Positions 44,883-64,000 of a stretch of 64,000 nt of DNA are shown one piece after another. The notes below the pieces were generated by a model, which worked only from the letters and a program-made list of their open reading frames with translations, was not told the DNA's origin and did not search any database. The DNA is taken from positions 1,674,001-1,738,000 of the forward strand of contig CP085323.1 of assembly GCA_022870745.1 (NCBI GenBank), in the 5' to 3' direction. Origin of the DNA: Silvibacterium acidisoli. Lineage in GTDB: Bacteria > Acidobacteriota > Terriglobia > Terriglobales > Acidobacteriaceae. Numbering within the stretch: the first letter of the stretch is position 1; every line of letters begins with the position of its first letter. A program made the position numbers and the translations under genes.

Positions 44883-45764
44883 TTATTTGCGCAGGCTTCT
44901 GTAGGCGTCCGTCAAAATCGGAGGCGTTACTGCGCGAACAAAACTTTTGAACGAATTCGACGTCTGAGGTTCTTCTACAACCTCGCCCGGCCGCTTCATA
45001 AACAGCGTCGAGTGCGAGTCGTTCACTTCCTCTTCCGGACGTCCATTCGAGTAGTAATACGTAGCAATCGACTTGCGCGTCCGATCCGGCGGGCACATCA
45101 GAGGATTCGGATGCCCATGGAATGACGTGCTGGTCGTGCTGAAAATTGCGCAACGGTTGAAGACCGGCAGAACCTTCACCTCGGCCTTGGACATTTCCTT
45201 GTCCCACAGCTCGAAATGGCCGCCGTACTCTTCCTTCCAATCCTTGTTCAGGTAAACCAGCACGTTGATACGGCGATCCACCTTCAGGTACTCGTGGTAG
45301 TTGAAGTCCGCATGCACGCCCAGCTTGCCGCCGGGCTTGATCTGGTGCAGCCCGCCACCGACGAAGTACGGGTCGGTAATCAGGCTCTTGATCCCGGTCA
45401 GGTCCTCGAGAAATCCGAGCATCGGCCGGCTGTTCAGGAAATACAGCACATCGCGAATCGAATCAGGAAGCCGCTCGACCACGTCGAACGCAAGCTTCTT
45501 CTCGTTGGGATTGTCGAACTCACTCCACTTAATCTCTTTCGGCTCAGGAAAGTCCTGGAGGGCTGCCTCAACCGCCTCGACCGGCAGGAAATTATCGAAG
45601 TACATGTGAGGAAAAGGCTTGTTGCTGAGGTACTCAGCCGACTTCTCCTTGCCGAGACGCTCAAGCTTGCTTGTAAACGCGTCTCCGAGCAGTTCCTTCA
45701 TGGTTTCCTTCTTTGCTGGGTCGAGGTCTTGAGCGGCAAATTGATCCGCTTGGAATATGCCCAT
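44883..45764 (-). CDS. Fe(II)/2-oxoglutarate-dependent oxygenase (prolyl-4-hydroxylase-like)
   Basis: A 293-aa putative hydroxylase. The double-stranded beta-helix core shows the iron triad H151-x-D153 in KLGVHADFNYHEYL and a distal His (H216) in TSFHGHPNPL. Arg/Lys at 230-231 (TRKSIATYYYS) would bind 2-oxoglutarate. An N-terminal 60-residue extension precedes the core. Relatives act on sugars, peptides or small molecules in polysaccharide loci; the substrate here is unknown. It is the last gene before a terminator, preceded by the flippase gene. Confidence 0.88.
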   Translation of the reverse strand: MGIFQADQFAAQDLDPAKKETMKELLGDAFTSKLERLGKEKSAEYLSNKPFPHMYFDNFLPVEAVEAALQDFPEPKEIKWSEFDNPNEKKLAFDVVERLPDSIRDVLYFLNSRPMLGFLEDLTGIKSLITDPYFVGGGLHQIKPGGKLGVHADFNYHEYLKVDRRINVLVYLNKDWKEEYGGHFELWDKEMSKAEVKVLPVFNRCAIFSTTSTSFHGHPNPLMCPPDRTRKSIATYYYSNGRPEEEVNDSHSTLFMKRPGEVVEEPQTSNSFKSFVRAVTPPILTDAYRSLRK

Positions 45765-45829
45765 TCTGATCGAAACGGGTGGGGCCGATCAATAACACTA
45801 ACTGGGTATACGGCAGGTCACTCGGGCTT

Positions 45830-45861
45830 GCGATCTGTTTAATAAAAGGTAAACAGATCGC
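45830..45861. repeat. 11-bp perfect inverted repeat between flippase and oxygenase genes
   Basis: Arms GCGATCTGTTT and AAACAGATCGC with a 10-base A/T-rich loop lie in the 108-base gap, 12 bases past the flippase stop. No U-tract follows on either strand, so a regulator site or an mRNA-processing hairpin is more likely than a terminator. Confidence 0.6.
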
Positions 45862-45872
45862 TTAAGAAAGAG

Positions 45873-47270
45873 TTACCAAGGAACGTTGGCGAATGGGGAT
45901 CCAAATCCGAGCCAGCTCCGCAACAGCAGCGCGGCGACGAGGCACGTGACAAACGCCGCGGTAAGCCACGTGTCCTGCCAGTAGAGCTTCATTCCTTCCC
46001 GATGCGCGCTCACAACGGTAACGAAGTAAACCGGCAGATCGCTCAGTGCCACCGCAAGCACGGCCCCGGTCATGCCCAGCATGTGATAACCGAACGGAAG
46101 TCCGGCGTAGAGAGTGATGCAGTAAATCAGATATCCGAGAGCGTTGTAGTGAGCCTTTTGCAGCGAGAGAATCGCCTGGCTGGTGGTGCTGTAGAGCAGC
46201 GTGTGCCAGAGGCCGAGCGTGAGAATGCCGATCATCCAGGCCGCTTCGTGATAACGCTTGTCGAAGATCAGCCGGACAAAATAATCTCCCGTGCAGACCG
46301 TAAACACCAGCAGCAGGCCGCCGACGACCATCACCGGCATACGGTACTTCAACACGATCGCCTGGTACTCATTGCGAGGTCGCTCAGAGAACTTGGCGAT
46401 GAACGGAAATCCGACTCTTTGGCAGAACTGGAGAATAATCTGGCGGGGAATGTCCGAAAGAGCAAAAGCGATGCCGTAAATGCCCAGCATCCGGAACGAG
46501 ATCAACTTCGCCAGGATGAGCCGATCCGATTGCAGCGCAAGGAAGGTCAGCGCCGTACCGATAAGAATCCAGCGCCCGAACTGCACCAGCGATCGGACAG
46601 CTTCTTTCTCCCACTCAAAGCGCGGACGAATCTCCGGCATCATGAAATAGCTGACAATCGTCCGAATCACCTCGGAAATCAATCTGCCTGCCACCAGAGC
46701 CATCAGCGACGGCTGATAAAGCGCCCACAGGTACGTCACAACAAACTGGACCACCTGCTGCAGCAGCTCCAGCATCGACAGGCGGCCAACGCCGAGATGA
46801 CGGGCCATGGTAAGCAGGCTTGGCGAACTGGCGCCGGCAATGGCACAGCCCAATCCCAGCGCCGGCAGAATCCAGATCATGCGCGGCTCGTGGTAGAACT
46901 GCGCCACCGGCCATGCCAGAGGAATGGTGATAACGAACAGGCCGATCCCGCGAAGCACCTGCAGCGTCCACGCCGTATTCAGGAACGTGGGTTCATCGCC
47001 CCGGGGATGCTGAATGATGCTTTCCTGGAGCCCGATATGGGAAAAGAGATAGAGCCCCACCATCACGGTTGTGACGAGGGCCATGATGCCGAAAAGGTCT
47101 GGCGCGAATAAGCGGCTGAGCACAGCGCTGCTTACCAGCCGCAGCACCATCGTCAGGCCATACGAAATCGTGACGAAGTACGTCCCCTTGACCGCCTTCG
47201 ATTCAAGGGATCGAAATTGGGACTCTTCGGGATCTTCCGTAAGCGGTGTGGTCTCCGTCGCGAGCGTCAT
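45873..47270 (-). CDS. Wzx-type polysaccharide flippase
   Basis: A 465-aa membrane protein of the oligosaccharide-flippase (MOP) superfamily with about twelve to fourteen helices. Typical features are VLSRLFAPDLFGIMALVTTV near the start, the QESIIQHPRG loop, the GRWILIGTALTFLALQSDRLILAKL block and FPFIAKFSERP. It would move an undecaprenyl-linked sugar unit to the periplasm. It is read on the same strand as the oxygenase, methyltransferase and ABC exporter genes, and fits with the initiating transferase and Wzy-like gene at the right end. Confidence 0.88.
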   Translation of the reverse strand: MTLATETTPLTEDPEESQFRSLESKAVKGTYFVTISYGLTMVLRLVSSAVLSRLFAPDLFGIMALVTTVMVGLYLFSHIGLQESIIQHPRGDEPTFLNTAWTLQVLRGIGLFVITIPLAWPVAQFYHEPRMIWILPALGLGCAIAGASSPSLLTMARHLGVGRLSMLELLQQVVQFVVTYLWALYQPSLMALVAGRLISEVIRTIVSYFMMPEIRPRFEWEKEAVRSLVQFGRWILIGTALTFLALQSDRLILAKLISFRMLGIYGIAFALSDIPRQIILQFCQRVGFPFIAKFSERPRNEYQAIVLKYRMPVMVVGGLLLVFTVCTGDYFVRLIFDKRYHEAAWMIGILTLGLWHTLLYSTTSQAILSLQKAHYNALGYLIYCITLYAGLPFGYHMLGMTGAVLAVALSDLPVYFVTVVSAHREGMKLYWQDTWLTAAFVTCLVAALLLRSWLGFGSPFANVPW

Positions 47271-47825
47271 ACGGTGTCACGCGTCCATTCCTGCGGCGAA
47301 CTTTCCGCTTGGGCTTTGCCAGGAAAAAGTGGGCGGACCAAAACCGCGAAGCAGCATATCCGATGCGGCACGCTCAATAAAAAGTGAGTCAACATGTAAA
47401 AAGTGCCCATGAAAAGATACGACAGGGTTCCGGGGGAAAATACGGCAATAGAGTGGAGCGATATTACTTGTAGCCGGTGGCTTTATGCCTGCTGTTATGC
47501 GGGAACGAACCTGATTCTAACTGTTCCGCCGACGCCATACAACGCGCAGTCACCGTACTTTCGTGGCATCTCTGTAAACAAATCGGGTCAGTAAGAAATT
47601 CATTTTATGAGCATTCCAGCCTTTTTCGCAGGAGCGATCCGGTCTTCGTCAATTAGACGCCTTTTTATCAGATAAGACGGAGCAATGAGGATCTGAAAGG
47701 CGCATCTATTACACGGAAACGCAATAATTCTCCCATGAGTGAAGCATTGCGAAACACAAGGCTCACACCAAAGAGTTCATTGCGAGCAAAGCAGCCTCCG
47801 CTGTGCACTTACGCAGGCGCTCTTA
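47271..47825. other. intergenic region of 555 bases, no gene seen
   Basis: The small open frames in this gap (for example 47403-47594) lack a ribosome site and family likeness. The base composition is less G+C-rich than the neighbouring genes, which suits regulatory DNA driving the flippase gene. I see no clear promoter, terminator or repeat. Confidence 0.4.
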
Positions 47826-48614
47826 TCAATTCCCGCCAGCCATCGATGGAACCGGATACGAATCCTTCACGAAATAAAACCCCTGGTAATTCCTGAGTCG
47901 AAGTCTCGGTTTCAGCCGGACAGACAGCGTACTTTCCGGGCAATCCCAGCTGTCCACTAGGCGATACCCTAGCTTCATCAGCGCATCGATAAACTCCTGC
48001 CGGTTGAAAATCTGGTATGGACAGAAGAACTCGCCGATCTGGTGCAAAGTGTAGAAATGCTCGCCATCCCAGGTCGGCACGCGATTGATGATCAGGTATG
48101 GCGGAGCCGCCTTCAAAGCCCCGAGCTTCGCAGACAGCGGCTCCTTGATGAACTGCAACGTTCCAGCCGTGATCAGGACATCTGAGCCGTCAGCATCGCT
48201 GAACTCGGTCGTGAACCTCAGCCCTTGACTCTGCTCCTGGAGCGCACGCTCACGGCCAACTTCCACGATCACCGGAACGTCACAGACGAGCCAGTCGATT
48301 CCAGCCGGCATCTTCATGTATTGCTTGTTAACGTAATAAGCAATGCCTACGCTGCCTCCGAAGTCGAACAGCCGCAGGCCTTCCTTCAATAGCGGCTTCA
48401 GGTGGAAGGCCGTTACGTAATCGGTCGGACGCTTGCGCAGAACCGGGTAGGTCCGGAAGATCTCCGCCGCTTCCTTACTGTTGTAGCCGACGCTTTTCCC
48501 CTGAGGAATCTCTCCCTGCGCTGCGTCGAATGACGGATACACACCTCGCCATGGAGTTCCTACAAGAACTTTACGCAGCAGTGCATTCGATTGAATCTTT
48601 TCGCGCAGCATCAT
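47826..48614 (-). CDS. TIGR04325-family methyltransferase
   Basis: A 262-aa putative SAM-dependent methyltransferase of the TIGR04325 (LIC12133) family, common in surface-polysaccharide loci. Landmarks are WRGVYPSFDAAQGE near the N-terminus, the SAM-type LRLFDFGGSVGIAYY, the CDVPVIVEVGRERA segment and the FCPYQIFNRQEFIDALMKLGY end. Two adjacent ATGs at 48614 and 48611 follow AGGAG. The MsbA-like exporter gene ends 47 bases upstream, so the two are probably cotranscribed. Confidence 0.85.
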   Translation of the reverse strand: MMLREKIQSNALLRKVLVGTPWRGVYPSFDAAQGEIPQGKSVGYNSKEAAEIFRTYPVLRKRPTDYVTAFHLKPLLKEGLRLFDFGGSVGIAYYVNKQYMKMPAGIDWLVCDVPVIVEVGRERALQEQSQGLRFTTEFSDADGSDVLITAGTLQFIKEPLSAKLGALKAAPPYLIINRVPTWDGEHFYTLHQIGEFFCPYQIFNRQEFIDALMKLGYRLVDSWDCPESTLSVRLKPRLRLRNYQGFYFVKDSYPVPSMAGGN

Positions 48615-48661
48615 GGATAGAAAGGCTCCTCACTCGAGCGGAATCAAAGGTAAAGGATCAA

Positions 48662-50530
48662 CTAGACCCGGCTGGAAGGAAGCGAGACTTCCAAAGAGGC
48701 GTCGCCGTCTTTTTCCGCCTCAGGAACAACATCGCCCTCACCGGGCGCGAGAAAAAGATTGCTCTCGATCGCATGTTGACGTGTATAGAGATCGTTATAA
48801 CGGCCCTGAGCACACAACAGCTCGACGTGGCTGCCGCGCTCCACAATCTCGCCGCTCTCGATCACGAGAATCTGATCCGCGCGACGGATCGTCGAAAGTC
48901 GATGCGCAATCACAAAGGTTGTACGGCTGCGCATCAGGTAATCCAGGCCCTGCTGAATCAGTGCTTCCGATTCAGAATCAAGGCTCGATGTCGCCTCATC
49001 CAGAACCAGCACGCGTGGGTCCGCGACGATGGCGCGAGCGATGGAAATTCGCTGACGCTGCCCGCCGGAAAGCTTGATGCCACGCTCGCCCACGATCGTC
49101 TCCAACCCTTCAGGAAACCGGTCCGCGAACTCATCGACACGGGCGATGCGCACGGCATTCATTACCTCTTCCTCGGTCGCATCCGGACGCGAGAAAGCAA
49201 TATTGTCACGAATCGTACCATCGAACAAGAAGGATTCCTGCAACACCACGCCAAGCTGACTGCGATAGCTCGAGAGCACTACCGAACCCAGATCCGTGCC
49301 ATCCACAAGGATGCGTCCCGAAGCCGGCGCATGGAAGCCACAGATCAGGCCGATCATCGTCGACTTGCCCGAGCCCGACGAACCGACAAGTGCCGTCACC
49401 GTTCCTGGAGCAGCCGCAAACGAAATGTTTCGCAGAACCGGCTTGTCTTCAACATAGGAGAACGAAACGTTTTCAAATCGGATATCGCCCGCGATCGCAC
49501 GCTCCGGCAGCGTAACCGCGCGGTTTGGATCGGCCTCTTCCGGCACCTCGCTCAGCACCTCATGTGTGCGATCGAGTCCGGCAATCGCCTCGGTGATCTG
49601 CGTTCCGATCGACACCACCTGTACCATGGGCTGAACCATGTAAGCCAGCAGCATGGTGTACGTCACGTACCCTGCCACCGTCAGGCTATGGCCCAGCATC
49701 TGGCGGCCGCCTGAGTAAATCACCACGGCGGCAATCACTCCAATCATTCCGGTCGACGCCATGGTCGTATACGAAGTCGTGGTAATCGCGCGCAGCACAT
49801 TGTCGAGCAGCCGGTGCACACCGGCTGAAAACACCGCCGACTCGCGATCTTCCGCGCGATAGATCTTCACCACGCGAACGCCGCCGAGCGATTCGGTAAG
49901 CCGCCCCGTCACCTCCGCAGTGATGCTGCCGCGCTCCTTTGCGATCGGCCGGATAAACCGGAAGACCTTGCGAAGAATCAGGCAGAAGCAGCCCATGAAA
50001 ACCATGGCCACGCCGGTTATCTTCGGGCTTAATACAAGCAGCATGATCAGCGCAAACAGCGCGGTCAGCAGACCACCGGCAAAGTCGATCAACCCGGCGC
50101 CTACAAGGTTGCGCACACCCTCCACGTCCGTCATGATGCGCGATACCAGAGTGCCCGTGCGATTCGCATCGTAGTAGGCCACGGGCAGCTTGCCGATATG
50201 CTTCTGCACCTGGATGCGAAGATCCGTGATGATGCGCCATGCGGCTTTTGAAAGCAGCTGCGTCACGGTGAATGCAGCGAGCGCCTGGATGGCAGTCGCA
50301 GCGAGAACCGCAATCACAATCCACGGCAGCATCCGGGGATCGTGCTTGCCGGTCGTCTCGCCGATCACGTTATGAATCAGGAAGTATGTCGAAACCGGAA
50401 TCACCAGCACGCAGGCGCGGTTGATGATGATCAGCAGAAGGCCGGCGAGCAGCATACCCCGGTAGGGGCGCAGGATCGACCAGACCCGCGACATCGATGT
50501 TGGCAACTGTTTTAGCTCTATCTTCGCCAT
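48662..50530 (-). CDS. MsbA-like ABC exporter (fused permease-ATPase)
   Basis: A 622-aa half-transporter: six membrane helices in residues 1-320, then an ATPase with Walker A LVGSSGSGKSTMIGL (around residue 380), signature LSGGQRQRISIARA, Walker B VLVLDEATSSLDSE and the H-loop VIAHRLSTI. It resembles lipid A / multidrug / peptide exporters (MsbA type) and lacks a C39 peptidase domain. A 35-residue polar tail follows. It lies between the JmjC-like oxygenase genes and the methyltransferase, and is a candidate exporter of the product of this locus. Confidence 0.92.
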   Translation of the reverse strand: MAKIELKQLPTSMSRVWSILRPYRGMLLAGLLLIIINRACVLVIPVSTYFLIHNVIGETTGKHDPRMLPWIVIAVLAATAIQALAAFTVTQLLSKAAWRIITDLRIQVQKHIGKLPVAYYDANRTGTLVSRIMTDVEGVRNLVGAGLIDFAGGLLTALFALIMLLVLSPKITGVAMVFMGCFCLILRKVFRFIRPIAKERGSITAEVTGRLTESLGGVRVVKIYRAEDRESAVFSAGVHRLLDNVLRAITTTSYTTMASTGMIGVIAAVVIYSGGRQMLGHSLTVAGYVTYTMLLAYMVQPMVQVVSIGTQITEAIAGLDRTHEVLSEVPEEADPNRAVTLPERAIAGDIRFENVSFSYVEDKPVLRNISFAAAPGTVTALVGSSGSGKSTMIGLICGFHAPASGRILVDGTDLGSVVLSSYRSQLGVVLQESFLFDGTIRDNIAFSRPDATEEEVMNAVRIARVDEFADRFPEGLETIVGERGIKLSGGQRQRISIARAIVADPRVLVLDEATSSLDSESEALIQQGLDYLMRSRTTFVIAHRLSTIRRADQILVIESGEIVERGSHVELLCAQGRYNDLYTRQHAIESNLFLAPGEGDVVPEAEKDGDASLEVSLPSSRV

Positions 50531-50632
50531 GACGCCTTCGCCGGTTGAGACACAGTTTACTGCACACTTCGCCGCACGCTCGTGGCATCCGGGCGAACTT
50601 TAGTGGGATCGTATCGTTGCAAAAAGAACACG

Positions 50633-50662
50633 CCTGCCGCCCGGTAGTTACCCGGCGGCAGG
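50633..50662 (-). terminator. hairpin after the first JmjC-like gene
   Basis: A strong stem (CCTGCCGCC paired with GGCGGCAGG, with a small bulge) lies just past the stop of the JmjC-like gene. On the minus strand TTCTTTTTG follows after a short gap. Probably a partial terminator before the exporter gene. Confidence 0.6.
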
Positions 50663-50670
50663 ATGAACAG

Positions 50671-51675
50671 CTACGAGCGAGAACTTTCGAGCAGCATCTT
50701 GCGGCGCGAATCGGCCAGGCTCGAGATAGGAGAAACATAGGAGAGTTTGCGTGAAAGAGCGCCATGCGGAAACCACTTCTGCCATGTCTCGACCGCGCTC
50801 ATAACGGCACCGATCGCATGCAGATAAGCAGCCTTCACAACCCGGGTCGGCGCAGACTTCACAATGCGCGGATTGCATGACTCGGCCACAAAACCATTCC
50901 AGTTCACGCGGTCCAGCATGTTGGTGCAAACAGAAATCGAAGTGCTCACGACACGCGCCGAGTGCCACCACTTGGAAGGGACAAAGATCGTCTCGCCGGG
51001 CTGAATGATGCCGCGATACTGCACCGCGCGGGCAAGCAGGGGAAACTTTTCCAGATCGGGATTGACGAGGTCATCGATCTGCGAGGTCGTCAGCGTCTCC
51101 GGATGAGCATAGATATTCGGAGTATCTTCGGGCGAGAAGAGAACGAATTCCTTGTCGCCATAGATTTCGCTGATCATTGCATTGGCGTTGTCGCCATCGA
51201 AATGCATCAACGGAAACTTGCCGCCCACGCCGCCAATCAGCAGTTTCAGGTAGCCGTCAGGACGGCGAAAGCGCTTCGGCATCAGCGGACTGCAGTAACG
51301 TCGCGGGAAGCCATAGGCATTCTCCGGCGAGAGATCCGGCAGCAGCTGCGGCATGTGCTGATGAATGATCACCTTGTGCAGATACGGCCCTGGCTTCTCT
51401 GCTGTCGAAGCAAGCACCGCATCTATCAGCGCCGCCATCGACATCTTTACGCCGCCATAAGTTACATCCACTTCTTCGGCACCGAACCGGCTCTTGAAAA
51501 ATTCCGGGGTCCAGCGGTGCAGCGCGTTCCACTGAGGCATCGCGTCTTTGATGATCACCGGACGATTCGGGATCACGTACTCCCGCAGAAACTTCTCATA
51601 TGGAAGATCGGCCGCATTGCGGCGTTCAATCGGAACCACCTTGATCGTGCGGTCTGTCGCCTTTTCCGTCTGCAT
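50671..51675 (-). CDS. JmjC/cupin_8-like Fe(II)/2OG oxygenase A
   Basis: A 334-aa protein with a cupin_8 (JmjC-like) core. The N-terminal EYVIPNRPVIIKDAMPQW is the typical family opening. The iron triad is H158-x-D160 in KFPLMHFDGDNA and H238 in FVPSKWWHSA, and Lys in the FVLFSP region could bind 2-oxoglutarate. Bacterial relatives hydroxylate proteins or small peptides and include natural-product enzymes. The ATG has AAGGA upstream. It follows the second JmjC-like gene by 20 bases. Confidence 0.87.
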   Translation of the reverse strand: MQTEKATDRTIKVVPIERRNAADLPYEKFLREYVIPNRPVIIKDAMPQWNALHRWTPEFFKSRFGAEEVDVTYGGVKMSMAALIDAVLASTAEKPGPYLHKVIIHQHMPQLLPDLSPENAYGFPRRYCSPLMPKRFRRPDGYLKLLIGGVGGKFPLMHFDGDNANAMISEIYGDKEFVLFSPEDTPNIYAHPETLTTSQIDDLVNPDLEKFPLLARAVQYRGIIQPGETIFVPSKWWHSARVVSTSISVCTNMLDRVNWNGFVAESCNPRIVKSAPTRVVKAAYLHAIGAVMSAVETWQKWFPHGALSRKLSYVSPISSLADSRRKMLLESSRS

Positions 51676-51695: not shown

Positions 51696-52604
51696 CTACT
51701 TCGACTTCCGCTTGATTATGCGCTTCAGTGTCAGCCCCGTCTCAATCGCCAGGCGCTTCGAATTGTCGATCAGCGCCGACTGCCCTGGAGGCGTTGGATT
51801 CATCCCCATACGGCGCAGATGATAGTTCGCCTGGTACACGTTCTTCCGCTTCCAGTCCTTGAACTGATAGCTGATACTGAACGAAATGCCGACATCGTCG
51901 CCATTCTGCAGCCAGTGCGGGCAATTCACGGGGATGTGAACCCCAATGCCCGGCTTCATCTCGCAGACAAAAGCGCGATCCTGAAATTGCGGCTTATATA
52001 CGCCGGCGTTGTTGTCCTTGGCCCAGAACTTCTCCAGCTCCGCCTCGGGAACTACATCCTTATCTGTGCGGTCGAAGATGTTAATCGTCTTTGAGCCGCG
52101 AACCTGCATCAGGAAATTGCACTCGCGGTCAATGTGGTATGCCGTCACGCGATTCGGCGAGGTAAAGAAGATGATCGCTTCCTGGCTCTTCTTGTCGCTG
52201 TCGATCTCCTGACCGCTCAGGCGCGAAACTTCCGCAAGGCACTGGTCAAGCAGCTCGCCGTATTCGGGATCTTTTTCGACGTGCCGCAGCATCATCCATG
52301 CGCGGCCGCTATCGATATCGTCGAAGGTCTCTTCAACGGTCTTCGTCTTTGCTGGATATGTCTCCCAACGCTGGCCGACCTGGATATCGCCGGCATCATA
52401 AACAGCCCAGGGACGCGTCGCCGTGCCCTCCGCCAGCAGCCTGCGCATGCGGGCACGCTGGAAGAGCGGGTGACTCTCAGTAAAAATATGCGAGTAGGAA
52501 AACGCCTTCTTATCGTACGAATGGCGGAAGCCTTCGTTGCTGGCATCGAAGAAGGATCCGGAAACAACGGCTGACTGGGGACGCGCGATTGTCGCTGCGC
52601 TCAT
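51696..52604 (-). CDS. JmjC/cupin-like Fe(II)/2OG oxygenase B
   Basis: A 302-aa protein of a different cupin subgroup. The iron triad would be H157-x-D159 in VTAYHIDRECNFLMQVRG and H230 in IPVNCPHWLQNG, with Lys in GSKTINIFD as a possible 2-oxoglutarate ligand. The first 100 residues are a distinct leader (FRHSYDKKAFSYSHIF) that might bind substrate. The ATG has AGGAG eight bases upstream. It heads a minus-strand unit with oxygenase A and the exporter. Function is inferred from fold only. Confidence 0.82.
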   Translation of the reverse strand: MSAATIARPQSAVVSGSFFDASNEGFRHSYDKKAFSYSHIFTESHPLFQRARMRRLLAEGTATRPWAVYDAGDIQVGQRWETYPAKTKTVEETFDDIDSGRAWMMLRHVEKDPEYGELLDQCLAEVSRLSGQEIDSDKKSQEAIIFFTSPNRVTAYHIDRECNFLMQVRGSKTINIFDRTDKDVVPEAELEKFWAKDNNAGVYKPQFQDRAFVCEMKPGIGVHIPVNCPHWLQNGDDVGISFSISYQFKDWKRKNVYQANYHLRRMGMNPTPPGQSALIDNSKRLAIETGLTLKRIIKRKSK

Positions 52605-53433
52605 TGGAACACTCCTGCTATCAGACTTGCTTATGTGTTTTCATGCTCAACGTAGTCGAGAATTGGCTGCACTCGCCCAGAATCCTGCCTGCGAGCGAAA
52701 TGCAGCCACCGTCTGCGCCCTTCGTCCGGTGTATCTTCCTGATACTTGCTGGAAGAGGCACGCGGCAGCGAGCGAAAGAACCAAGGAATAACAGGTGATA
52801 CAGGCACTCGTGCAGGGCTCTGCGGCCCTCATTACACTGCCGACTCCAATCACAGCCTGATTCGGAATCTGCAACGTTAAGAAAAATCTACGCTGACCCC
52901 GGATCAGGAAACTATTCCCCGTTGGTAACGGACTGTACGACCAATTGGTCATTTTCGTTTTTCACCAGAGCGATTAGACTTACATTCCCTAGGTTCCATG
53001 TTTTGAGAGGCTCATCCCGCGCCGGAACTCGGAAATCGAGGTAACCCAAACGAGGCATTCCCTCAAAATTTGGAGCTCATTACCATCTGGGGATGATGAA
53101 GGTTAATTCCGGCTGCTACCTTCATTGTTCAGTATCACCGGCTTTATGATTTCGCAGTGCTGGATCGTTCCTCCGCCGAGAAGGCTTGCGTCACTCTATG
53201 CAACAGCGCTCCCAATGGAGTGACATGGGCGAAGCCTGGCCAAAAGTAGCCCTGAAAACCTCGGAACTTTAACAATAAGAGCAACATCTGTACTGTCAAA
53301 ACCCCGGAAGATCGCATAGTTTTCCGCTCCCTCCAGGCGAAATACTCCCTCCATGCGAAACGCGGCCTGCGAACGATCGGATTGGCCATTCTTCCTTCTC
53401 ATAAACCATGAGCACGTCTGTGGAGAGACACTT
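52605..53433. promoter_or_regulatory. divergent 829-base control region
   Basis: This long gap separates the oxygenase/exporter unit (minus) from the initiating transferase (plus). No gene is supported in it. A weak inverted repeat TGAAGGT ... ACCTTCA occurs around 53095-53123. The length and lower G+C content suggest several regulatory sites, but I cannot assign promoters. Confidence 0.4.
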
Positions 53434-54942
<1,509 letters not shown>

Positions 54943-55042: not shown

Positions 55043-55990
55043 ATGCGTATTTTGCTAACCGGCTCAAACGGGCAGGTCGGCACGGAGTTCCGCAAAACAA
55101 GCGGGCACGATGCCGAGATTATTTCTACCGGGAGCCGCGATCTTGACCTCACCCGCGAGGCGGAAATTCGCCGTTTCGTACGGGAAGTCAAACCCGATGT
55201 CATTGTGAATGCCGCTGCCTTCAGCGATATCGACGCCGCTGAGCGGAACTGGGACGCCTGTTTCGCCATCAACGCCATCGCTCCCGTCATCCTCGCCGAG
55301 GAAGCTCATCGTCTCGATGCGCTTCTCATCCACTACTCGACCGACTACGTCTTCGACGGCACGAAGTCTTCTCCCTATACGGAAAAAGATCCAACCTCGC
55401 CCCTCAATGTATACGGAGCCTCCAAGGTCGCGGGAGAAGAAGGCATCGCCGGCAGCTTTGCCCGCGCCATCATTCTCCGAGTCGGCTGGATCTATAGCCT
55501 TGAAGGCGACAACTTCCTGCGCTCCGTTCTACGGCTCGCCGAGAACGCTGAAGAACTGGAAGCGGTCAGCGACCAGCTTGGAACCCCCACCTCCGCGCTC
55601 GCAATCGCGCAGGCCACCAGGCAGCTCATCCGTATCTACGAGACCGTCCCGCGAATCCAGTTCCCTACCGGCATCTTTCACCTCGCCGCACAGGGTTCTA
55701 CCTCGTGGCATGGCTTCGCATCCGCCATCGTGAATGCCCTTGCCGAACGCAAGGAAGCGCTGGTGCTGCCAGTCGAGCCTGTGGAACATTTCGCTTTTGC
55801 CCGCAGGCCTGTGAAGCTCGCGCTTGACTGCAAGAAATTTCACGAGGCTTTCGGTTTCCAGCTTGCTCCCTGGGAAGATCAGCTGAAGGAGGTGCTGGCC
55901 GAAGCGCAGCCGTTCGGCAGCAGTCCACCAAGGATCAAGCGAGTCGACTCCGCAGAGACCGTATCACGTCTTCGCGTGACGAAGGTCTAG
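55043..55990 (+). CDS. rfbD: dTDP-4-dehydrorhamnose reductase (RmlD-like)
   Basis: A 315-aa NADPH-dependent reductase of the extended SDR family. The N-terminal MRILLTGSNGQVGTEF is the dinucleotide site, and YSTDYVFDG and the catalytic YGASKVAGE pair are present. It should make dTDP-L-rhamnose, although RmlA, B and C are not in this window, so related 4-keto-sugar substrates remain possible. The C-terminal 15 residues after the canonical end are extra. It follows the initiating transferase by 100 bases. Confidence 0.9.
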   Translation: MRILLTGSNGQVGTEFRKTSGHDAEIISTGSRDLDLTREAEIRRFVREVKPDVIVNAAAFSDIDAAERNWDACFAINAIAPVILAEEAHRLDALLIHYSTDYVFDGTKSSPYTEKDPTSPLNVYGASKVAGEEGIAGSFARAIILRVGWIYSLEGDNFLRSVLRLAENAEELEAVSDQLGTPTSALAIAQATRQLIRIYETVPRIQFPTGIFHLAAQGSTSWHGFASAIVNALAERKEALVLPVEPVEHFAFARRPVKLALDCKKFHEAFGFQLAPWEDQLKEVLAEAQPFGSSPPRIKRVDSAETVSRLRVTKV

Positions 55991-59400: not shown

Positions 59401-59768
59401 GCTGGGAGGACGCAGTCGAACGATTTGCGACCCGCCATCGTGTCGTCTTTACCTGGATCCAGGAACGCATGCCCTTCCTCTTGCCGGAAGCCTTGCGCTA
59501 CGGTTCGGCCGGGGTGGCTCCAAACGAGCTCATGCCCACGAAGACACAGCGCTATCCGGGCGAGATCGTTCTCTTCCGTGCAAGTGACGTCGCCCAGATC
59601 GACGGAGCGGATCCATCTCTCGGCTGGGATTCTGTCGCCAGCCAGGGAGTTCGGATCGAGTTCGCGCCAGGGGATCATGAATCCATGTTTCGCCCGCCCC
59701 ACCTGGCCACGTTCGGAAGCATTCTGCGGCGCGTCCTGAGCGAAGGCGAAGCCGCTCTCAGCGCTTGA
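56439..59768 (+). CDS. single-module NRPS: truncated C, A, PCP, Cys-type TE
   Basis: An 1109-aa nonribosomal peptide synthetase. Residues 30-225 resemble the C-terminal half of a condensation domain (LDLYLAGCFSALLSRLL, then LPLRQLPLLSQNDLAAL) but lack HHxxxDG, so no condensation is expected. The adenylation domain has A3 YIIYTSGTTGKPKGV near 388, NCYGPTETT, FRTGD, LRGFRIELGEIE and the A10 lysine in LTGSGKVDRR. The carrier domain has S790 in DYGGYS. The thioesterase shows a proposed triad C910 (GWCAAG in place of GxSxG), D937 and H1080. By my manual alignment the specificity residues read D-I-M-Q-V-A-C-I-Y-K, which I cannot match to a known amino acid. One amino acid is probably activated and released by the thioesterase. 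Confidence 0.9.
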   Translation: MSSNTELSPLCNVTIAANAGGVARPRRTPEHSNLQEMLQQLPFVATTALRQNSEASLLLTLDEVSVLRAAAERMGTSLDLYLAGCFSALLSRLLWHESVSIIRIGVSPEVLTCVWDSTTPFRSAYASMRTELLEASSQIADAGPSFLFLPESKTFQPSSSASLRLTAGAGPAGSLQLWLTSAAGRWSSDILVGWLDSLRCLWLASAATPELPLRQLPLLSQNDLAALYTGLNQSSVAFPSIQEGISAWQAIARQAAATPSAIAVRHDGRQLTYAEIEDLSNLRARQLISLGAGKDRPVAICMERSELLPVALLSILKSGSCYVPLDPHHPRQRLTSILEECKPVAVLSDTHHASSFDGVVSCPVLQMDTACPEISPEPVLASPAPDDLAYIIYTSGTTGKPKGVQISQVSLLNLLETIRQKPGLSPRDRWLAVATISFDIATMDMLLPLFTGATLVISSRNAGGDPYEMAALIEQEDVTAMQATPFTLKLLANSDWQGKQGLKVIAGGEALPRDLANQLIDLGCELWNCYGPTETTIYSSVIRIHPGNGIVPIGGPVANTNLYVMDDAGRLVPPGVPGELYIGGIGVSHGYLDRPELTAQRFVSDPLSTDPAALCFRTGDLVRYLSTEEMQYMGRLDHQVKLRGFRIELGEIESVLRTHPIVADAAVILREDTPGEPRLIAYFTEDPSSVSGVKADLRAYASRLLPEYMLPSRVIRLDKMPLTGSGKVDRRALPVPEMMEGEDYGAPRPVAAGVEPASPLEAQLLLVFREVLNNNAIGVTDSFFDYGGYSVLTARLFSRIHRTLGRKLPISMLFDGPTPRKLAALIEKGMTPSIIVPIRTEGAAAPLFIVHSYLIYAVLLESIEPDRPIYGIRELEDAQIGIPLEDRARLYCAEIEKTCPSGPVHLAGWCAAGSLTVEVAKYLREHGRTVTTVSLFDAERPGWQPDVRAGESLLTARIRSSRNFHRERMRGLSLRGKISYMYAQWSRRWEDAVERFATRHRVVFTWIQERMPFLLPEALRYGSAGVAPNELMPTKTQRYPGEIVLFRASDVAQIDGADPSLGWDSVASQGVRIEFAPGDHESMFRPPHLATFGSILRRVLSEGEAALSA

Positions 59769-59776
59769 TCTTGCAC

Positions 59777-59803
59777 AAAAGGCCACCCAATGGGTGGCCT
59801 TTT
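59777..59803. terminator. bidirectional terminator between NRPS and flavin monooxygenase
   Basis: Perfect 12-bp arms AAAAGGCCACCC / GGGTGGCCTTTT with a three-base loop lie 9 bases after the NRPS stop, where two convergent genes meet. Confidence 0.93.
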
Positions 59804-59828
59804 GCATAGCTGTACAGCTGCCGAACCG

Positions 59829-61067
59829 TTAGCTTGTGGCAGCAACCGCCCTGCTCGCAACGGGCTGCCGCTTCACTCCCCTGGCCAGATACTTCGTGAC
59901 CCGGAACGCAGTAAAACGCGAGCCGAATGCGAAACGCATGACCGGGCCGAAGCTGAAAGCAGCGGACACGCCGGTAAAGTAAAGCCCGTGCACCGACGAC
60001 TCAAAACCCGGCGAAAGAATGGGCGCATCTTCAAGGCGCTTGATCTTGGTGGCCAGCGATGGGCTCAGGAACTTCAGGCGATTCACATCAACACGATAGC
60101 CGGTAGCGACTACGCAGTGATCGACCACCTCTTCGACGATCTTCCCGTTCTTGTCCTTCAAGGTCAGGTGAACCTTGCCATTACGAATCTCAGCCGTCTG
60201 CGGGGTCATGCCGGTATGAACAGGCACGCGGCCTTCGATACCTTTTCTGACGGTCCATCCAGCGGACGGGCCAAGGAAGCGCTTGACCACCTTCACGCGG
60301 AAGTCAGAAGGAAGGTGATAGAAGATCTGCGGCATGTCGGTCACAAAGCGTGCCTTCCAGCCCGGCCCAACGCCACTGCGCGGCGAGCGGAGGCGCTGCC
60401 AGAGCGGCTCGCGGCCAGGGTGTGGCGCATCGTGGAAGCGGACCGCGCTGCGGCGCGCATACACCGAAACATCGGCATCGCCGTCCTTCAGCAATGCAGC
60501 CAGATCCAGCGCCGAAGCGCCCGAACCGACGACCGCAACCTTGCGTCCGGCAAAGGTCTTGGGATCCTTGTGCACCGAGCTATGCGTTACATAGGCCGGA
60601 TCGAGATTGCGGAAGCATTGCGGCAGATAGGCGAAATGCGTGATCCCTACTGCGACTACAACCTTCTTCGCCGAAACCGTCTCGCCGCCCTCCAGCGTCA
60701 GCCGGAAGCCGTCCTTGACCTCTTCGATCAGGGTGACGAAACGATCGTCCAGTTCTGGAACCATTCGGCGCTGGAATTCGTCACCATAACTGACAAATGT
60801 TTCCAGGCTGACCGGAATCTTTTCGTGGTCGTAAGGGATGTTGCGCTCTGCGCAGAATTTTTCGAGTGTGAAGATGGAGGAGGGGTCAGAAAGGTTTGAA
60901 GCGAAGCCGTCAGACTTCAACATCATGCCTTCCGGCATCTGCTCCCGCCACGTGTACATCAGCTTGCCGAAGATGCGAAAGGGGATACCGCTCTCACGCA
61001 GATGGGCTGCAATCGAGAGACCGTAAGGACCAGCTCCCACAATGGCTACTTCAGTAAAATTCGACAT
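59829..61067 (-). CDS. flavin-dependent monooxygenase-like oxidoreductase
   Basis: A 412-aa FAD- and NAD(P)H-binding protein. The FAD motif VAIVGAGPYGLSIAAHL is at the N-terminus, a second Rossmann motif KVAVVGSGASALDLAALL near residue 185 binds NADPH, and ATGYRVD is the usual C-terminal landmark. It resembles class-B monooxygenases and ornithine/lysine N-hydroxylases in outline, but the exact subfamily is open. I chose the ATG at 61067, after GAGAGG; ten further codons upstream are in frame. It is divergent from the ATP-grasp gene and convergent with the NRPS gene. It could oxidise the amino group or ring of the NRPS-activated residue. Confidence 0.84.
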   Translation of the reverse strand: MSNFTEVAIVGAGPYGLSIAAHLRESGIPFRIFGKLMYTWREQMPEGMMLKSDGFASNLSDPSSIFTLEKFCAERNIPYDHEKIPVSLETFVSYGDEFQRRMVPELDDRFVTLIEEVKDGFRLTLEGGETVSAKKVVVAVGITHFAYLPQCFRNLDPAYVTHSSVHKDPKTFAGRKVAVVGSGASALDLAALLKDGDADVSVYARRSAVRFHDAPHPGREPLWQRLRSPRSGVGPGWKARFVTDMPQIFYHLPSDFRVKVVKRFLGPSAGWTVRKGIEGRVPVHTGMTPQTAEIRNGKVHLTLKDKNGKIVEEVVDHCVVATGYRVDVNRLKFLSPSLATKIKRLEDAPILSPGFESSVHGLYFTGVSAAFSFGPVMRFAFGSRFTAFRVTKYLARGVKRQPVASRAVAATS

Positions 61068-61259
61068 ATAACCTCTCACGAAGCGGTGAGCCGACACAAC
61101 ACCGCAAGCTCGCGTTGGAGTCTGTTTTAGTTGAGCAGAATGCCGCTAGACCGTAGCATAATGCAGTGATTTTGGCCCTCACAATCAAACTTTCGTGCAA
61201 TAAGCGATGGGCAAAAAATCGGTTCTATTAATTGATATAAGCCGGAAACTATTATTTTG
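61068..61259. promoter_or_regulatory. divergent promoter gap, monooxygenase and ATP-grasp genes
   Basis: A 192-base gap. An A/T-rich stretch just before the ATP-grasp start (TTGATATAAG around 61232-61241) could contain a -10 element. No operator-like palindrome was seen. Confidence 0.35.
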
Positions 61260-62492
61260 ATGCGACCGAAAGTTCTCCTGTTGATGACTTGCTGCTGGGT
61301 TCCTCCCGCACGTTTCGCGCTCGTGCTTCTGAGAGAAGGGTGCGATGTCGATGCGGTGTGTCCTCCGGGCCATGTCATTCGAAAGGTCAAAGGAATCGGC
61401 CAGGCCTATCCCTACAACGGCTTTCAGGGTTCGCTTCGCAACGCCATTCTCGAGTCTCGACCCGACTTCATCATTCCCTGCGACGACTACGGCACATCCA
61501 ACCTCTACGAGATCTGGCAGGCCGAATTGCGCAATGGCGATCCGCACAAGCTCGCCGCGCTCATTGCCCGCTCGCTCGGTAATCCGGATAACTGTCATCT
61601 CGTCACCGAACGTGGGCGCTTTCTCGATGTCGCGAAACAGCTCGACATCCTGATTCCCAAAACCGACACGCTCCCTCCAGCGGCCAACGTCAAAAGCTGG
61701 CTTCGTACGCAGTCTTTCCCGGCCTACCTCAAGGCGGATGGCACATCCGGCGGCGTGGGTGTGCGTCGCGTCGAAAATGCCGAAGATGCGCAACTCGCAG
61801 CTGCGGATCTCTCCCGCCCCCCCGGCATGCTACGAGCCTTGAAGCGCTTCCTGGTCGATCAGGATCGCCGCCTTCTCTTGCCGTTTCTCAAGCGCGTTCA
61901 CCCTTCGCTCAGCCTGCAGGAGTTCATCGAAGGAAACGAAGCCAACGCCGCTGTCGCCTGCTGGCAGGGCGAACTGATCGGCTGCATCTGCTTCGAAGTC
62001 ATAGAGCGGACCGAAGCCCTCGGCCCGGCCGCTGTGCTGCGCGTCATCCGGCATCCGCAGATGGAATCGGCAGCCAGGAAGCTGGTGTCGCATCTGCAGC
62101 TGACCGGCCTCTACGGCCTCGACTTCATACTTTCCGCAACCGGCGACGCTTATCTTCTTGAGATGAACGCCCGCGCCACCCAGACCTGCCACCTGGTGCT
62201 GGGTGACGGCCGCTCGCCTATCCCTGCCCTCGCTGCCCGCCTGGCCGGCCACGATGCCCCGCCGGCAAAGACCGTCACCGAACTCGATACGATCGCTCTT
62301 TTTCCCGCCGAATGGCTCAGGGACCCGCAAAGCACTTACCTTGAAGCCGCTTACCACGATGTTCCCTGGGAGGCGCCCGAACTGATCGATGCAAGCCTGA
62401 CGCCGAATCTTGAGCAGCGCCTTCGCTTCAAGCAGGGCAGCCAGGTCCTGGAGTTCAAAGCGTCCGTGCAGGCACGGTCTTACAAGAACTGA
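61260..62492 (+). CDS. ATP-grasp carboxylate-amine ligase
   Basis: A 410-aa ATP-grasp protein. The N-terminal pre-ATP-grasp domain starts RPKVLLLMTCCWVPPARF. The ATP-binding lysine segment AYLKADGTSGGVGVRRV and the C-terminal metal site with GLDFILSATGDAYLLEMNAR and TQTCHL are visible. These enzymes join a carboxyl to an amine through an acyl phosphate, making dipeptides or sugar-amino acid amides. The ATG at 61260 follows a TTG, and there is no strong ribosome site. With the NRPS and monooxygenase it forms a compact peptide-tailoring set. The substrates are unknown. Confidence 0.85.
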   Translation: MRPKVLLLMTCCWVPPARFALVLLREGCDVDAVCPPGHVIRKVKGIGQAYPYNGFQGSLRNAILESRPDFIIPCDDYGTSNLYEIWQAELRNGDPHKLAALIARSLGNPDNCHLVTERGRFLDVAKQLDILIPKTDTLPPAANVKSWLRTQSFPAYLKADGTSGGVGVRRVENAEDAQLAAADLSRPPGMLRALKRFLVDQDRRLLLPFLKRVHPSLSLQEFIEGNEANAAVACWQGELIGCICFEVIERTEALGPAAVLRVIRHPQMESAARKLVSHLQLTGLYGLDFILSATGDAYLLEMNARATQTCHLVLGDGRSPIPALAARLAGHDAPPAKTVTELDTIALFPAEWLRDPQSTYLEAAYHDVPWEAPELIDASLTPNLEQRLRFKQGSQVLEFKASVQARSYKN

Positions 62493-62503
62493 CTGCGTCC
62501 GCG

Positions 62504-64000
62504 TCAGAAGTCCTGGCTCTGCCGTGCTCGCTCAGTTTCCCGAAGTTCTTCCTCCGCGGGCGGGATCCGGCTGCCGTCCATCGCATGTACAACTGCCGGA
62601 GGCCTGGGACGCATGGTCTTACCATCCAGCACCGGAGCCTTGCTCGAAACCTCCGTGCTCCAGTCCTCTTGCACATCCAGCACGTCGCCAGCCTGCAACT
62701 GCGGCAGATAATCCATTTCCTCGGGGATCTCGACCTCTACGCGCACCTCTCTGGCCGCCGCTTCCCAGGTGCTCATCCCGCCAATCACCAGCATCAGCGG
62801 CAGAATCATGGCGCTATTCAGCAGGTTGTCGATCGCCGTCATCAGGATGACGCCGACAAATGCGTGGCGTAGATTCAGATCTTCGATATCGGAGCGCGCA
62901 ATCGGAAACCAGGCGACGCGGACCACGGGAATCAGCTGCATGGCTTCAAGCGCAAGCAGCCCGAACAGCCCGTACATGCCAAAGGTCAGCAGCCACAGGC
63001 CAGCCGGGCGCATCTGCAGATGGCTCCACCAGTCCCACTGGTTCGATCCCAGCAATGGTTGCTCCAGCGCAAGGCTGACAGTTCGCTCGTCACGTGCCAG
63101 GCGTGTGCCGAGGGAACCCCGTCCGATCTTTTTCAGAAAAGCCGAGACATCGTGCGCAGCCGCATTATGGTGTACCGTTTCGCTCAGCGAAACGATGTTC
63201 AGCAACCTAAGGCTCGCAAACGACAGAATGCCCACCACCAGAACGATGGCGCAGACACGCGGAAAGTACTTCCGGCTGATAAACACCAGCGGCAGCAAAG
63301 CGAAAAGCAGCACAATGCTGCCAGTCGACTGGCACAGGATCGTAGTGACGCAGAGGATGATAGCGACCAGCGCCGTCGGCAAACCAAGAATGCGCTCGAA
63401 TGTGTGCCGCAGCCACAGCCACACCGAGAGGAGCGCCGCGGTCGCCATCCAGATTCCGAGCTGCGTTCCGTTTTCAAGGAAGCCGATTGGCCGATACCCG
63501 AAATAGCGCTTCACCCTTACCCACCGCAGCGGCTGAAAGCCGTAAAGGTGTGCATAGAATTGTGGTCCGTAGTAAATCTCTACGAGGCATATCGGCACAT
63601 ACAACAGGCCCGCAATCACAAACGCCTTCGCGGCCAGGCGCAACGATGCGGTGTCGGAGAAATACAGCCTGCCCAGCACGTAAGGCACACCCCATGACAG
63701 CAGCTGGTAAATCTCATCCTGCAGCCCATGCCCCACGTCTCCCGGATTCGCAATCGTCGAGAGCAGCGGCACCATGCACCACATCGCCATCGGCAGGTCC
63801 CAAAAGGTCAGGCGGAACCTGCGGAAGATCTTGCGATCGAAGAGAAAGACACACAGCAGCCCGGTAAATCCGGTCACCGTCGCCTTGGTGAAAAAGTAGT
63901 TCGTGGCAAGGCTGTCGCCGAGAATCGTGTACGGCTGTGGGTCTTCGCTGGCCAGGAAATGAGCAGCAGGCAGGATGGCCCATCCGCCCAGAAAGTTGAG
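62504..64000 (-). CDS. Wzy / O-antigen-ligase family membrane protein (5' end beyond window)
   Basis: At least 498 codons read on the minus strand and stay open to the right edge, so the start is outside the window; the ATG-like GTG at 63877 is internal. About ten membrane helices are visible, with a large periplasmic segment between helices (ENGTQLGIWMATAALLSV, then FPRVCAIVLVVGILSF), typical of Wzy polymerases and WaaL ligases. A 90-residue polar tail with PRPPAVVHAMDGSR follows the last helix and is unusual for the family. It would polymerise or ligate the repeat units made by this locus. Confidence 0.82.
   Translation of the reverse strand, partial: LNFLGGWAILPAAHFLASEDPQPYTILGDSLATNYFFTKATVTGFTGLLCVFLFDRKIFRRFRLTFWDLPMAMWCMVPLLSTIANPGDVGHGLQDEIYQLLSWGVPYVLGRLYFSDTASLRLAAKAFVIAGLLYVPICLVEIYYGPQFYAHLYGFQPLRWVRVKRYFGYRPIGFLENGTQLGIWMATAALLSVWLWLRHTFERILGLPTALVAIILCVTTILCQSTGSIVLLFALLPLVFISRKYFPRVCAIVLVVGILSFASLRLLNIVSLSETVHHNAAAHDVSAFLKKIGRGSLGTRLARDERTVSLALEQPLLGSNQWDWWSHLQMRPAGLWLLTFGMYGLFGLLALEAMQLIPVVRVAWFPIARSDIEDLNLRHAFVGVILMTAIDNLLNSAMILPLMLVIGGMSTWEAAAREVRVEVEIPEEMDYLPQLQAGDVLDVQEDWSTEVSSKAPVLDGKTMRPRPPAVVHAMDGSRIPPAEEELRETERARQSQDF

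What the first reader, a model, noticed from the sequence alone, without database searches (positions are those of the whole stretch)
44883..64000. Surface-polymer locus combined with NRPS, three Fe(II)/2OG oxygenases, ATP-grasp ligase and MsbA-like exporter
Seen directly: a flippase, an initiating transferase, RmlD and a Wzy-like gene lie with a single-module NRPS, ATP-grasp ligase, flavin monooxygenase, three iron/2-oxoglutarate oxygenases, a TIGR04325 methyltransferase and an ABC exporter. In 19 kb there is no glycosyltransferase apart from the initiating one. I do not know a described system with this set. Inference: an amino-acid-modified exopolysaccharide, or a small peptide exported and possibly attached to it. 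This is the strongest candidate for an undescribed system in the window.
Basis: partly seen in the sequence, partly recalled or inferred. Interest (0 to 1): 0.85.

Follow-up and report, generated by a model that had tools for sequence, protein, structure and literature searches.

The report
Slime locus fused to polyketide-peptide assembly line
In some soil acidobacteria, the genes that export a slime polymer and the genes that build a small polyketide-peptide molecule sit in one conserved block that looks jointly controlled; the piece seen in the window is one arm of that block.

Summary
The genes are real and mostly well named, but the window cuts the locus. Continuing rightward (coordinates past 64000) come glycosyltransferases, Wza, Wzc and a PKS/aminotransferase/NRPS line, so 'no glycosyltransferase' is an edge effect. 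The core is one same-strand run, 90934-111063: NusG-like, WecG, GT2, Wza, Wzc, PKS-AMT, NRPS2 (degenerate A domain), PPTase; Wzc and PKS are 13 bp apart. A 12-of-12 sigma-54 site precedes it, the only site of 11 or more in 180 kb; seven relatives with the core have sites scoring 9-12 in the same orientation. The window genes belong to this unit: 24 of 36 locus genes, but 0 of 55 flanking ORFs, recur at 45% or more in at least 3 of these 7 relatives. The MsbA-like exporter is a separate clade (99/95) present in all 8 genomes; the JmjC-type oxygenase shares the genome with the PKS-AMT in 18 of 19 cases. A relative with the EPS run but no PKS line lacks the oxygenases, NRPS and second exporter there. 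Best reading: a co-expressed polymer and a secreted, oxidised beta-amino-polyketide peptide. Attachment of the peptide to the polymer is possible, unproven. Four paper searches listed no described case.

The parts
44883..45764 (-). Fe(II)/2OG oxygenase (2OG-FeII_Oxy_3)
   Evidence: PF13640 65.3 bits; H151xD153...H216 invariant in 4 of 4; 68-74% in 3 of 7 class A relatives
45873..47270 (-). Wzx-type flippase
   Evidence: PF13440 168.5 bits; 44-70% in 6 of 7 class A relatives
47826..48614 (-). TIGR04325-family methyltransferase-like protein
   Evidence: 188.5 bits, cut-off 80; only 33-37% in 2 of 7 relatives
48662..50530 (-). MsbA-like ABC exporter of a locus-specific clade
   Evidence: PF00664, PF00005; one clade of 8 locus copies against 39 other MsbA-like proteins, 99/95; other copy in own genome at 4130280
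50671..51675 (-). Fe(II)/2OG oxygenase, Cupin_8 type
   Evidence: PF13621 95 bits; H158xD160...H238 invariant in 8 of 8
51696..52604 (-). Fe(II)/2OG oxygenase, JmjC type, companion of PKS-AMT lines
   Evidence: No Pfam match; triad in 22 of 22; fold; same genome as PKS-AMT in 18 of 19
53353..54942 (+). Polyprenyl-phosphate sugar-1-phosphate transferase (initiating)
   Evidence: PF02397 227 bits; TIGR03025 405.9 bits, cut-off 295.55
55043..55990 (+). RmlD (dTDP-rhamnose synthesis)
   Evidence: PF04321 300 bits
56439..59768 (+). NRPS: half C domain, A, T, TE with Cys nucleophile (GWCAAG); proposed trans supplier of an amino acid to the PKS/NRPS line
   Evidence: Domains; alignment of 4 orthologues; A-domain codes and tree
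59829..61097 (-). FAD-dependent monooxygenase-like protein, paired with ATP-grasp
   Evidence: PF13738 74 bits; pair in other genomes
61257..62492 (+). ATP-grasp ligase-like protein
   Evidence: PF02655 34.5 bits, cut-off 23.2
62504..64000 (-). Wzy/O-antigen-ligase-like membrane protein (starts outside the window, at 64111)
   Evidence: ORF; no Pfam match; 60-70% in 5 of 7 class A relatives

Best explanation
The window holds the left arm of a locus of about 66 kb (44883 to about 111063 in continued coordinates) that couples two products: a Wzx/Wzy-type exopolysaccharide and a small peptide made by a PKS-aminotransferase-NRPS line. Shown by sequence: gene content, order, conservation, one same-strand core run, a near-consensus sigma-54 site before it, a NusG-like protein as first gene, a separate exporter clade, a degenerate A domain in the last module and Cys-type TE domains. 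Inferred: the divergent regulator (sigma-54 activator by reading) switches on the promoter at 90492; the NusG-like protein keeps RNA polymerase going over 20 kb so that Wza/Wzc and the PKS/NRPS are made together; the PKS adds one malonyl unit to a starter held on its N-terminal carrier domain; the aminotransferase turns the keto group into a beta-amine; the next module adds an amino acid (Val-like code, recalled); the last carrier domain, whose own A domain looks dead, is loaded in trans by the window's A-T-TE protein where that is present; a Cys TE releases the chain; the three 2OG oxygenases hydroxylate it; the MsbA-like paralogue exports it while the polymer leaves through Wza/Wzc.
For: Core run with gaps of 9-114 bp (mechanical starts; domains). 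The run is seen in G000, G159, G102, G197, G035, G066, G117, G160, partly in G142 and G099, and in the named Silvibacterium sp. contig L138. Sigma-54 site 12/12 in G000, the only one of 11 or more on both strands of 180 kb; best sites 9-12, same orientation, in the 7 others. Locus genes against flanks: 24 of 36 against 0 of 55 with hits of 45% or more in at least 3 of 7 relatives. AMT and JmjC in 18 genomes (2.5 expected, p 1.5e-18), AMT and Wzc in 13 (2.3 expected, p 7.2e-10) of 200, not corrected for kinship. Exporter clade 99/95. EPS-only relative G183. NRPS2 A domain degenerate in 9 of 9; GWC(A/L)AG in 13 of 13 TEs. Window A domain groups with internal A domains of other PKS-AMT lines (SH-aLRT 90).
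Against: No expression, chemistry or genetics. Within the run NusG was not detected in G102 and G197, PPTase not in G102, NRPS2 and PPTase lie beyond the contig end in G197, and G035 has extra genes inside. Four class A genomes with the full core (G035, G066, G117, G160) have no window-type NRPS in the fetched stretches or the family search (few candidates scored per genome), so trans loading cannot be general. In G035 and G159 the left arm is on another contig. The only MsbA-like proteins fetched from the partial class A genomes G142 and G099 fall outside the locus clade. Four genes inside the G000 stretch (71894, 73700, 74637, 80932) have no hit in class A relatives. FMO and ATP-grasp also occur without PKS-AMT. 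The p values ignore kinship.
Confidence: 0.6

Rival explanations
1. The PKS/NRPS product is attached covalently to the exopolysaccharide: the Cys TE or the ATP-grasp ligase hands the acyl-peptide to a sugar of the repeat unit before export, giving a peptide-decorated polymer.
For: Wzc-PKS gap of 13 bp and a shared promoter candidate; sugar transferase genes within 10 kb of PKS-AMT in 13 of 80 loci from at least three phyla; TEs of both NRPS proteins carry the Cys motif.
Against: A locus-specific MsbA-like exporter is more natural for a free product. PKS-AMT lines with JmjC also occur with no EPS-query hit in 40 kb (G168, G150). No peptidyl transferase acting on sugars was identified.
Confidence: 0.22
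2. Two neighbouring but independent clusters: an EPS locus and a PKS/NRPS cluster that share a favourable neighbourhood in this family.
For: Each occurs without the other: G183 has the EPS run alone, G168 and G150 have PKS-AMT without EPS-query hits in 40 kb.
Against: Same-strand core order in 8 genomes with the sigma-54 site; AMT and Wzc together in 13 genomes against 2.3 expected.
Confidence: 0.12
3. The A-T-TE with Cys nucleophile makes a beta-lactone or beta-lactam from a beta-hydroxylated amino acid, as in obafluorin or sulfazecin.
For: Cys nucleophile 13 of 13. ObiF1 and SulM have the catalytic Asp at position II, 30 residues before the His (numbers in PMC6668435 and PMC11298585, passages); the window NRPS type has an Asp exactly there in 4 of 4. 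Three 2OG oxygenases could beta-hydroxylate.
Against: An Asp is also present at the usual position I (27 residues after the Cys) in 13 of 13, and NRPS2 has Asp at position II in only 3 of 9. The SulM Gln-Cys-Asn motif is absent (Trp-Cys here).
Confidence: 0.06

Closest known systems
Cyanobacterial beta-amino-polyketide lipopeptide lines (puwainaphycin, floridanemamide class; microginin recalled)
   Same: KS-AT-ACP-aminotransferase-C-A-T order and beta-amine logic (PMC4219810 start of abstract in a listing; PMC13252402 passages)
   Different: No fatty-acyl ligase or loading A domain in front: the PKS starts with a bare carrier domain. No monooxygenase domain found inside; separate 2OG oxygenases instead. 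Last module with a degenerate A domain. Embedded in an EPS run.
Wzx/Wzy-dependent exopolysaccharide loci
   Same: Initiating transferase, flippase, Wza, Wzc-like protein, glycosyltransferases, WecG-type transferase
   Different: PKS/NRPS genes in the same run as Wza/Wzc
Specialised NusG regulators (LoaP, TaA, UpxY, RfaH)
   Same: A NusG-family gene heads a long antibiotic- or capsule-type operon (PMC7819879, passages)
   Different: Here the run carries both kinds; antitermination untested; five NusG-family matches in this genome
MsbA lipid A exporter
   Same: 445 bits to TIGR02203; 55-66% identical to the MsbA-like proteins listed for family genomes
   Different: Below the equivalog cut-off of 602 and a separate clade
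AB3403 and EntF (C-A-T-TE termination modules)
   Same: A-T-TE order; AB3403 matches residues 285-1086 and has a Cys TE with Asp at position I (PMC11298585, passage)
   Different: C domain reduced to its C-terminal half; Asp present at both positions

Membership tests
Wzx/Wzy-dependent EPS locus | Initiating polyprenyl-phosphate sugar transferase | tested here: met
   PF02397 227 bits
Wzx/Wzy-dependent EPS locus | Wzx flippase | tested here: met
   PF13440 168.5 bits
Wzx/Wzy-dependent EPS locus | Wzy polymerase | tested here: inconclusive
   No Pfam match for the window protein; two proteins at 78027 and 79555 match Wzy_C at 23 bits, cut-off 31.7
Wzx/Wzy-dependent EPS locus | Wza outer-membrane exporter | tested here: met
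   PF02563 77 bits
Wzx/Wzy-dependent EPS locus | Wzc chain-length tyrosine kinase | tested here: inconclusive
   TIGR01007 63.6 bits, cut-off 108.05
Wzx/Wzy-dependent EPS locus | Glycosyltransferases for the repeat unit | tested here: met
   GT4, GT2, WecG family
Beta-amino lipopeptide PKS/NRPS (puwainaphycin type) | KS-AT-ACP-AMT-C-A-T | tested here: met
Beta-amino lipopeptide PKS/NRPS (puwainaphycin type) | FAAL/CAL loading domain | tested here: not met
   The PKS starts with a PP-binding domain, and Wzc lies directly upstream
Beta-lactone/beta-lactam TE (ObiF, SulM) | Cys nucleophile | tested here: met
   GWC(A/L)AG 13 of 13
Beta-lactone/beta-lactam TE (ObiF, SulM) | Catalytic Asp at position II | tested here: inconclusive
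   Asp 30 residues before His in 4 of 4 window-type NRPS, 3 of 9 NRPS2; Asp at position I in 13 of 13 too
MsbA lipid A exporter | TIGR02203 equivalog cut-off | tested here: not met
   445.3 against 602 bits
Specialised NusG regulator | NusG N-terminal domain, extra copy at the head of an operon | tested here: met
   68.8 bits; five matches in own genome
Specialised NusG regulator | Antitermination of the operon | not testable with these tools
   needs RNA data
Fe(II)/2OG oxygenase superfamily (51696-52604) | HxD...H triad and double-stranded beta-helix | tested here: met

The most novel reading that the evidence does not exclude
The assembly line makes an oxidised beta-amino-polyketide peptide that is joined to the exopolysaccharide repeat unit, so that Wza/Wzc export a polymer carrying a PKS/NRPS-built side group: a nonribosomal way to decorate a bacterial surface polymer, with the split A-T-TE protein and the dead A domain of the last module as the hand-over machinery.
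Probability: 0.2. Interest if true: 0.88.

Novelty: new variant of a known kind. Interest (0 to 1): 0.62.

Why it matters
Capsule export genes and a PKS/NRPS line in one conserved run, with a sigma-54 site and a NusG-type gene at its head, would be a direct genetic link between biofilm polymer and small-molecule production in an abundant soil phylum. It gives clear tests: does the polymer carry the product, and does one signal control both? The rebuilt line (bare starter carrier, degenerate last A domain, separate A-T-TE) is also a case for studying how such lines are re-wired.

Tried and rejected
Rejected: 'an EPS locus without glycosyltransferases' (window edge). Rejected: window ABC as the housekeeping MsbA (separate clade; other copy at 4130280). 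Rejected as a general claim: trans loading by the window NRPS in all loci. Weakened on recheck: my first flank control searched +-20 kb around the JmjC gene, so most of the 55 flanking ORFs could not have been seen there even with full synteny; one search repeats it on 480 kb from 7 class A relatives and is the one I rely on. Corrected on recheck: I first read position II of the TE as lacking Asp; one search shows Asp there in 4 of 4 window-type NRPS, so the lactone/lactam rival is open and was raised slightly, to 0.06. One search was a faulty sigma-54 scan (wrong index for the GC pair); one search is the corrected one.

Not settled: amino acid specificities. Codes DIMQ(V/M)(A/S)CIYK (window), DAFWLAGTFK (class A PKS) and DILQ-type (most class B) come from motif mapping in my script; the position scheme and the Val-like reading are recalled. 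Wzc at 1e-180 in the class: 2 of 250 genomes, the own one and one of the same genus. Searches for a described EPS plus PKS/NRPS unit listed 3, 0, 2 and 2 papers; I saw titles and abstract starts only and opened none of these seven. Two of them (PMC11354219, PMC12935467) hold both EPS and T1PKS terms for Acidobacteriota and were not opened. Passages were read in PMC9723581, PMC13252402, PMC6668435, PMC11298585 and PMC7819879. PHROGs gave nothing useful.
Full report
Place and observation. The window is G000:C1:1674001-1738000 of a single-contig genome of 5,359,900 bases. I continue window coordinates to the right (1 to 180000). The named genes are there. The 51696-52604 protein has no profile match, but it is a JmjC-type 2OG oxygenase by triad (invariant in 22 of 22) and fold (pLDDT 85.9; best Foldseek match YxbC 7zcc, E 1.8e-11, TM 0.54). 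The other two oxygenases keep HxD...H in 4 of 4 and 8 of 8 aligned sequences. The NRPS holds, by reading the alignment, only the C-terminal half of a C domain, then A, T and TE.

What lies to the right. 62504-64111 Wzy-like; 64408-68709 secreted lectin/CHB_HEX protein; 68965 GT4; 70231 GT2-like (by reading); 71253 hexapeptide acyltransferase; 73700 GT2; 78027 and 79555 Wzy-like; 87015 GT2; 88031 hexapeptide acetyltransferase; 88629-90116 sigma-54 type activator (by reading, not scanned); then on the + strand 90934 NusG-like, 91705 WecG, 93119 GT2-like (by reading), 94392 Wza, 95616 Wzc-like, 97855 PKS-AMT, 106312 NRPS2, 110302 PPTase. With mechanical starts the gaps in this run are 57, 79, 16, 114, 13, 27 and 9 bp. 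The 'missing' glycosyltransferases are a window-edge effect.

Is the grouping more than chance? I searched the JmjC protein in 200 genomes of the family (19 hits), fetched 20 neighbourhoods and more contigs, and mapped the locus genes on them. The core run is seen in G000, G159, G102, G197, G035, G066, G117 and G160 ('class A'), partly in G142 and G099 at contig ends. Exceptions: NusG not detected in G102 and G197; PPTase not in G102; NRPS2 and PPTase beyond the contig end in G197; extra genes inside the run in G035. The left arm (exporter and companions) is on the core's contig in G000, G102, G197, G066, G117 and G160, and on another contig in G035 and G159. A named contig, Silvibacterium sp. 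L138, has the same core.

Flank control. On 480 kb from the 7 class A relatives, at E 1e-8 and 60% coverage, 24 of 36 locus genes have hits of 45% identity or more in at least 3 of the 7 genomes; 0 of 55 flanking ORFs do (28 left, 27 right; 25 of the 55 lie within 20 kb of the locus ends). Two flanking ORFs reach 45% at all: the gene at 111000, 67% in G159, which may be a further locus gene, and a transferase paralogue at 118804. Locus genes that fare badly: no hit for 71894, 73700, 74637 and 80932; TIGR04325 33-37% in 2, ATP-grasp 40-41% in 3, FMO and RmlD in 1 each. (One of the 24, the Wzy-like 78027, hits its paralogue's places.) An earlier control was too narrow and is not relied on.

Family-wide counts in the same 200 genomes, each with its own cut-off: AMT 26, JmjC 19, Wzc 18, ATP-grasp 40, FMO 50, window NRPS 5 (four class A and G069 at 40%). 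Overlaps: AMT and JmjC 18 (expected 2.5, p 1.5e-18), AMT and Wzc 13 (2.3, p 7.2e-10), AMT and FMO 19 (6.5, p 3.2e-8), AMT and ATP-grasp 15 (5.2, p 4.6e-6). These ask for the same genome, not the same place, and ignore kinship. One JmjC genome (G171) lacks AMT; five Wzc genomes lack AMT (G008, G020, G052, G183, G191).

Sorting the genes. In 40 kb of G183 there are the EPS run up to Wzc, regulator, acetyltransferase, Wzy1, GT2, RmlD and ATP-grasp, but no hit to JmjC, Cupin_8, 2OGa, hydrolase, exporter or NRPS and only a 25% hit to part of the PKS A domain. G183 has no JmjC or AMT hit in the family searches, and its one MsbA-like match falls outside the locus clade. Conversely G168 and G150 have PKS-AMT, JmjC, hydrolase and PPTase with no EPS-query hit in 40 kb, while G169 and G034 have both. 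So JmjC goes with the peptide side, and RmlD, Wzy and ATP-grasp fit the polymer side; Cupin_8 and 2OGa are seen only in class A among the family stretches.

Exporter. The window ABC is 55-66% identical to MsbA-like proteins listed for 143 of 200 genomes (list cut). On a tree with 8 locus copies and 39 others from 37 genomes, the 8 form one clade, 99/95. The copies fetched from the partial class A genomes G142 and G099 lie outside it. It scores 445 bits to TIGR02203, cut-off 602.

Control. Between the regulator and the NusG-like gene lies TGGCACGCCGATTGCA at 90492, 12 of 12 consensus positions. It is the only site of 11 or more on both strands of 180 kb; 14 sites reach 10 and 77 reach 9. The best sites in the other seven class A regions score 11, 11, 11, 12, 10, 9 and 10 (G159, G035, G066, G117, G160, G102, G197), all in the operon's direction. 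A score of 9 or 10 alone would not be remarkable. Specialised NusG proteins head antibiotic and capsule operons elsewhere (PMC7819879, passages); this genome has five NusG-family matches.

The line. PKS-AMT is ACP-KS-AT-ACP-AMT-C-A-T and NRPS2 is C-A-T-TE. The NRPS2 A domain is degenerate in 9 of 9 class A loci: split hits of 22-102 bits against 499-723 for complete class A PKS A domains and 849-880 for the window type, with a profile built from window-type domains and one PKS domain (the G197 PKS domain, cut by the contig end, gives 346). In many other PKS-AMT lines an A-T unit, separate or fused, precedes the KS; class A has Wzc there. In a quick tree of 167 A domains (SH-aLRT only) the window A domain groups with internal A domains of other lines (90). 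The class A internal A domain instead falls in the half of the tree that holds most loading A domains, nearest to Verrucomicrobiota domains most of which are also internal. So the amino acid types were exchanged between lines, in a direction I cannot tell. I infer that the window protein supplies the amino acid for the dead last module where it is present. Against this as a rule: four class A genomes with the full core show no such protein.

Release. All 13 TEs examined have GWC(A/L)AG, an Asp 27 residues after the Cys (position I) and a His. At 30 residues before the His, the spacing of the position II Asp in ObiF1 and SulM, the window type has Asp in 4 of 4 and NRPS2 in 3 of 9 (PMC6668435, PMC11298585, passages). 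AB3403 has Cys with position I. Ring formation of the lactone or lactam kind is thus not excluded, but not favoured.

Conclusion. The set is a real, conserved EPS plus PKS/NRPS locus, seen here only in one family (a Wzc hit at 1e-180 in 2 of 250 class genomes, the own one and one of the same genus). Most likely: joint expression of a polymer and a free, oxidised beta-amino-polyketide peptide with its own exporter. Attachment to the polymer is open. Four paper searches listed no described case by title or abstract start; that library holds open-licence papers only.

Noticed in passing
59829-62492 and G-handle genomes: FMO and ATP-grasp form a two-gene module: both in 38 of 200 family genomes, neighbours within about 0.5 kb in 19 of these 38 (counted by hand), often without PKS-AMT.
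   Followed up: partly
L091, L094, L110, L112, L113, L116, L119, L121, L125, L130, L133, L134, L137: A sugar-phosphate transferase gene lies within 10 kb of the PKS-AMT in 13 of 80 loci (Pseudomonadota, Planctomycetota, Verrucomicrobiota), so the polymer link may be wider than this family.
   Followed up: partly
G000:C1 1765012, 2339891, 862186, 3988715, 2492191: Five NusG-family matches in one genome, so several operon-specific antiterminators may exist.
   Followed up: no
64408-68709 and 82182-84785 (continued coordinates): Large secreted-looking proteins (legume-lectin-type and CHB_HEX domains in the first; no profile match in the second) recur in several class A and class B loci.
   Followed up: no
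118804-123016 (continued coordinates): Short-form sugar transferase (profile) followed by genes that look like rmlD, rmlC, rmlA and rmlB by reading, just right of the locus.
   Followed up: no
111000-112280 (continued coordinates): Membrane protein right after the PPTase (PMT_2 below cut-off), 67% identical in G159 only among 7 relatives; may be a further locus gene.
   Followed up: no
17677-21276 and 41264-44569: Two related large TonB-type receptor-like proteins in the left flank (by reading); paralogues also near JmjC loci at 24-28%.
   Followed up: no
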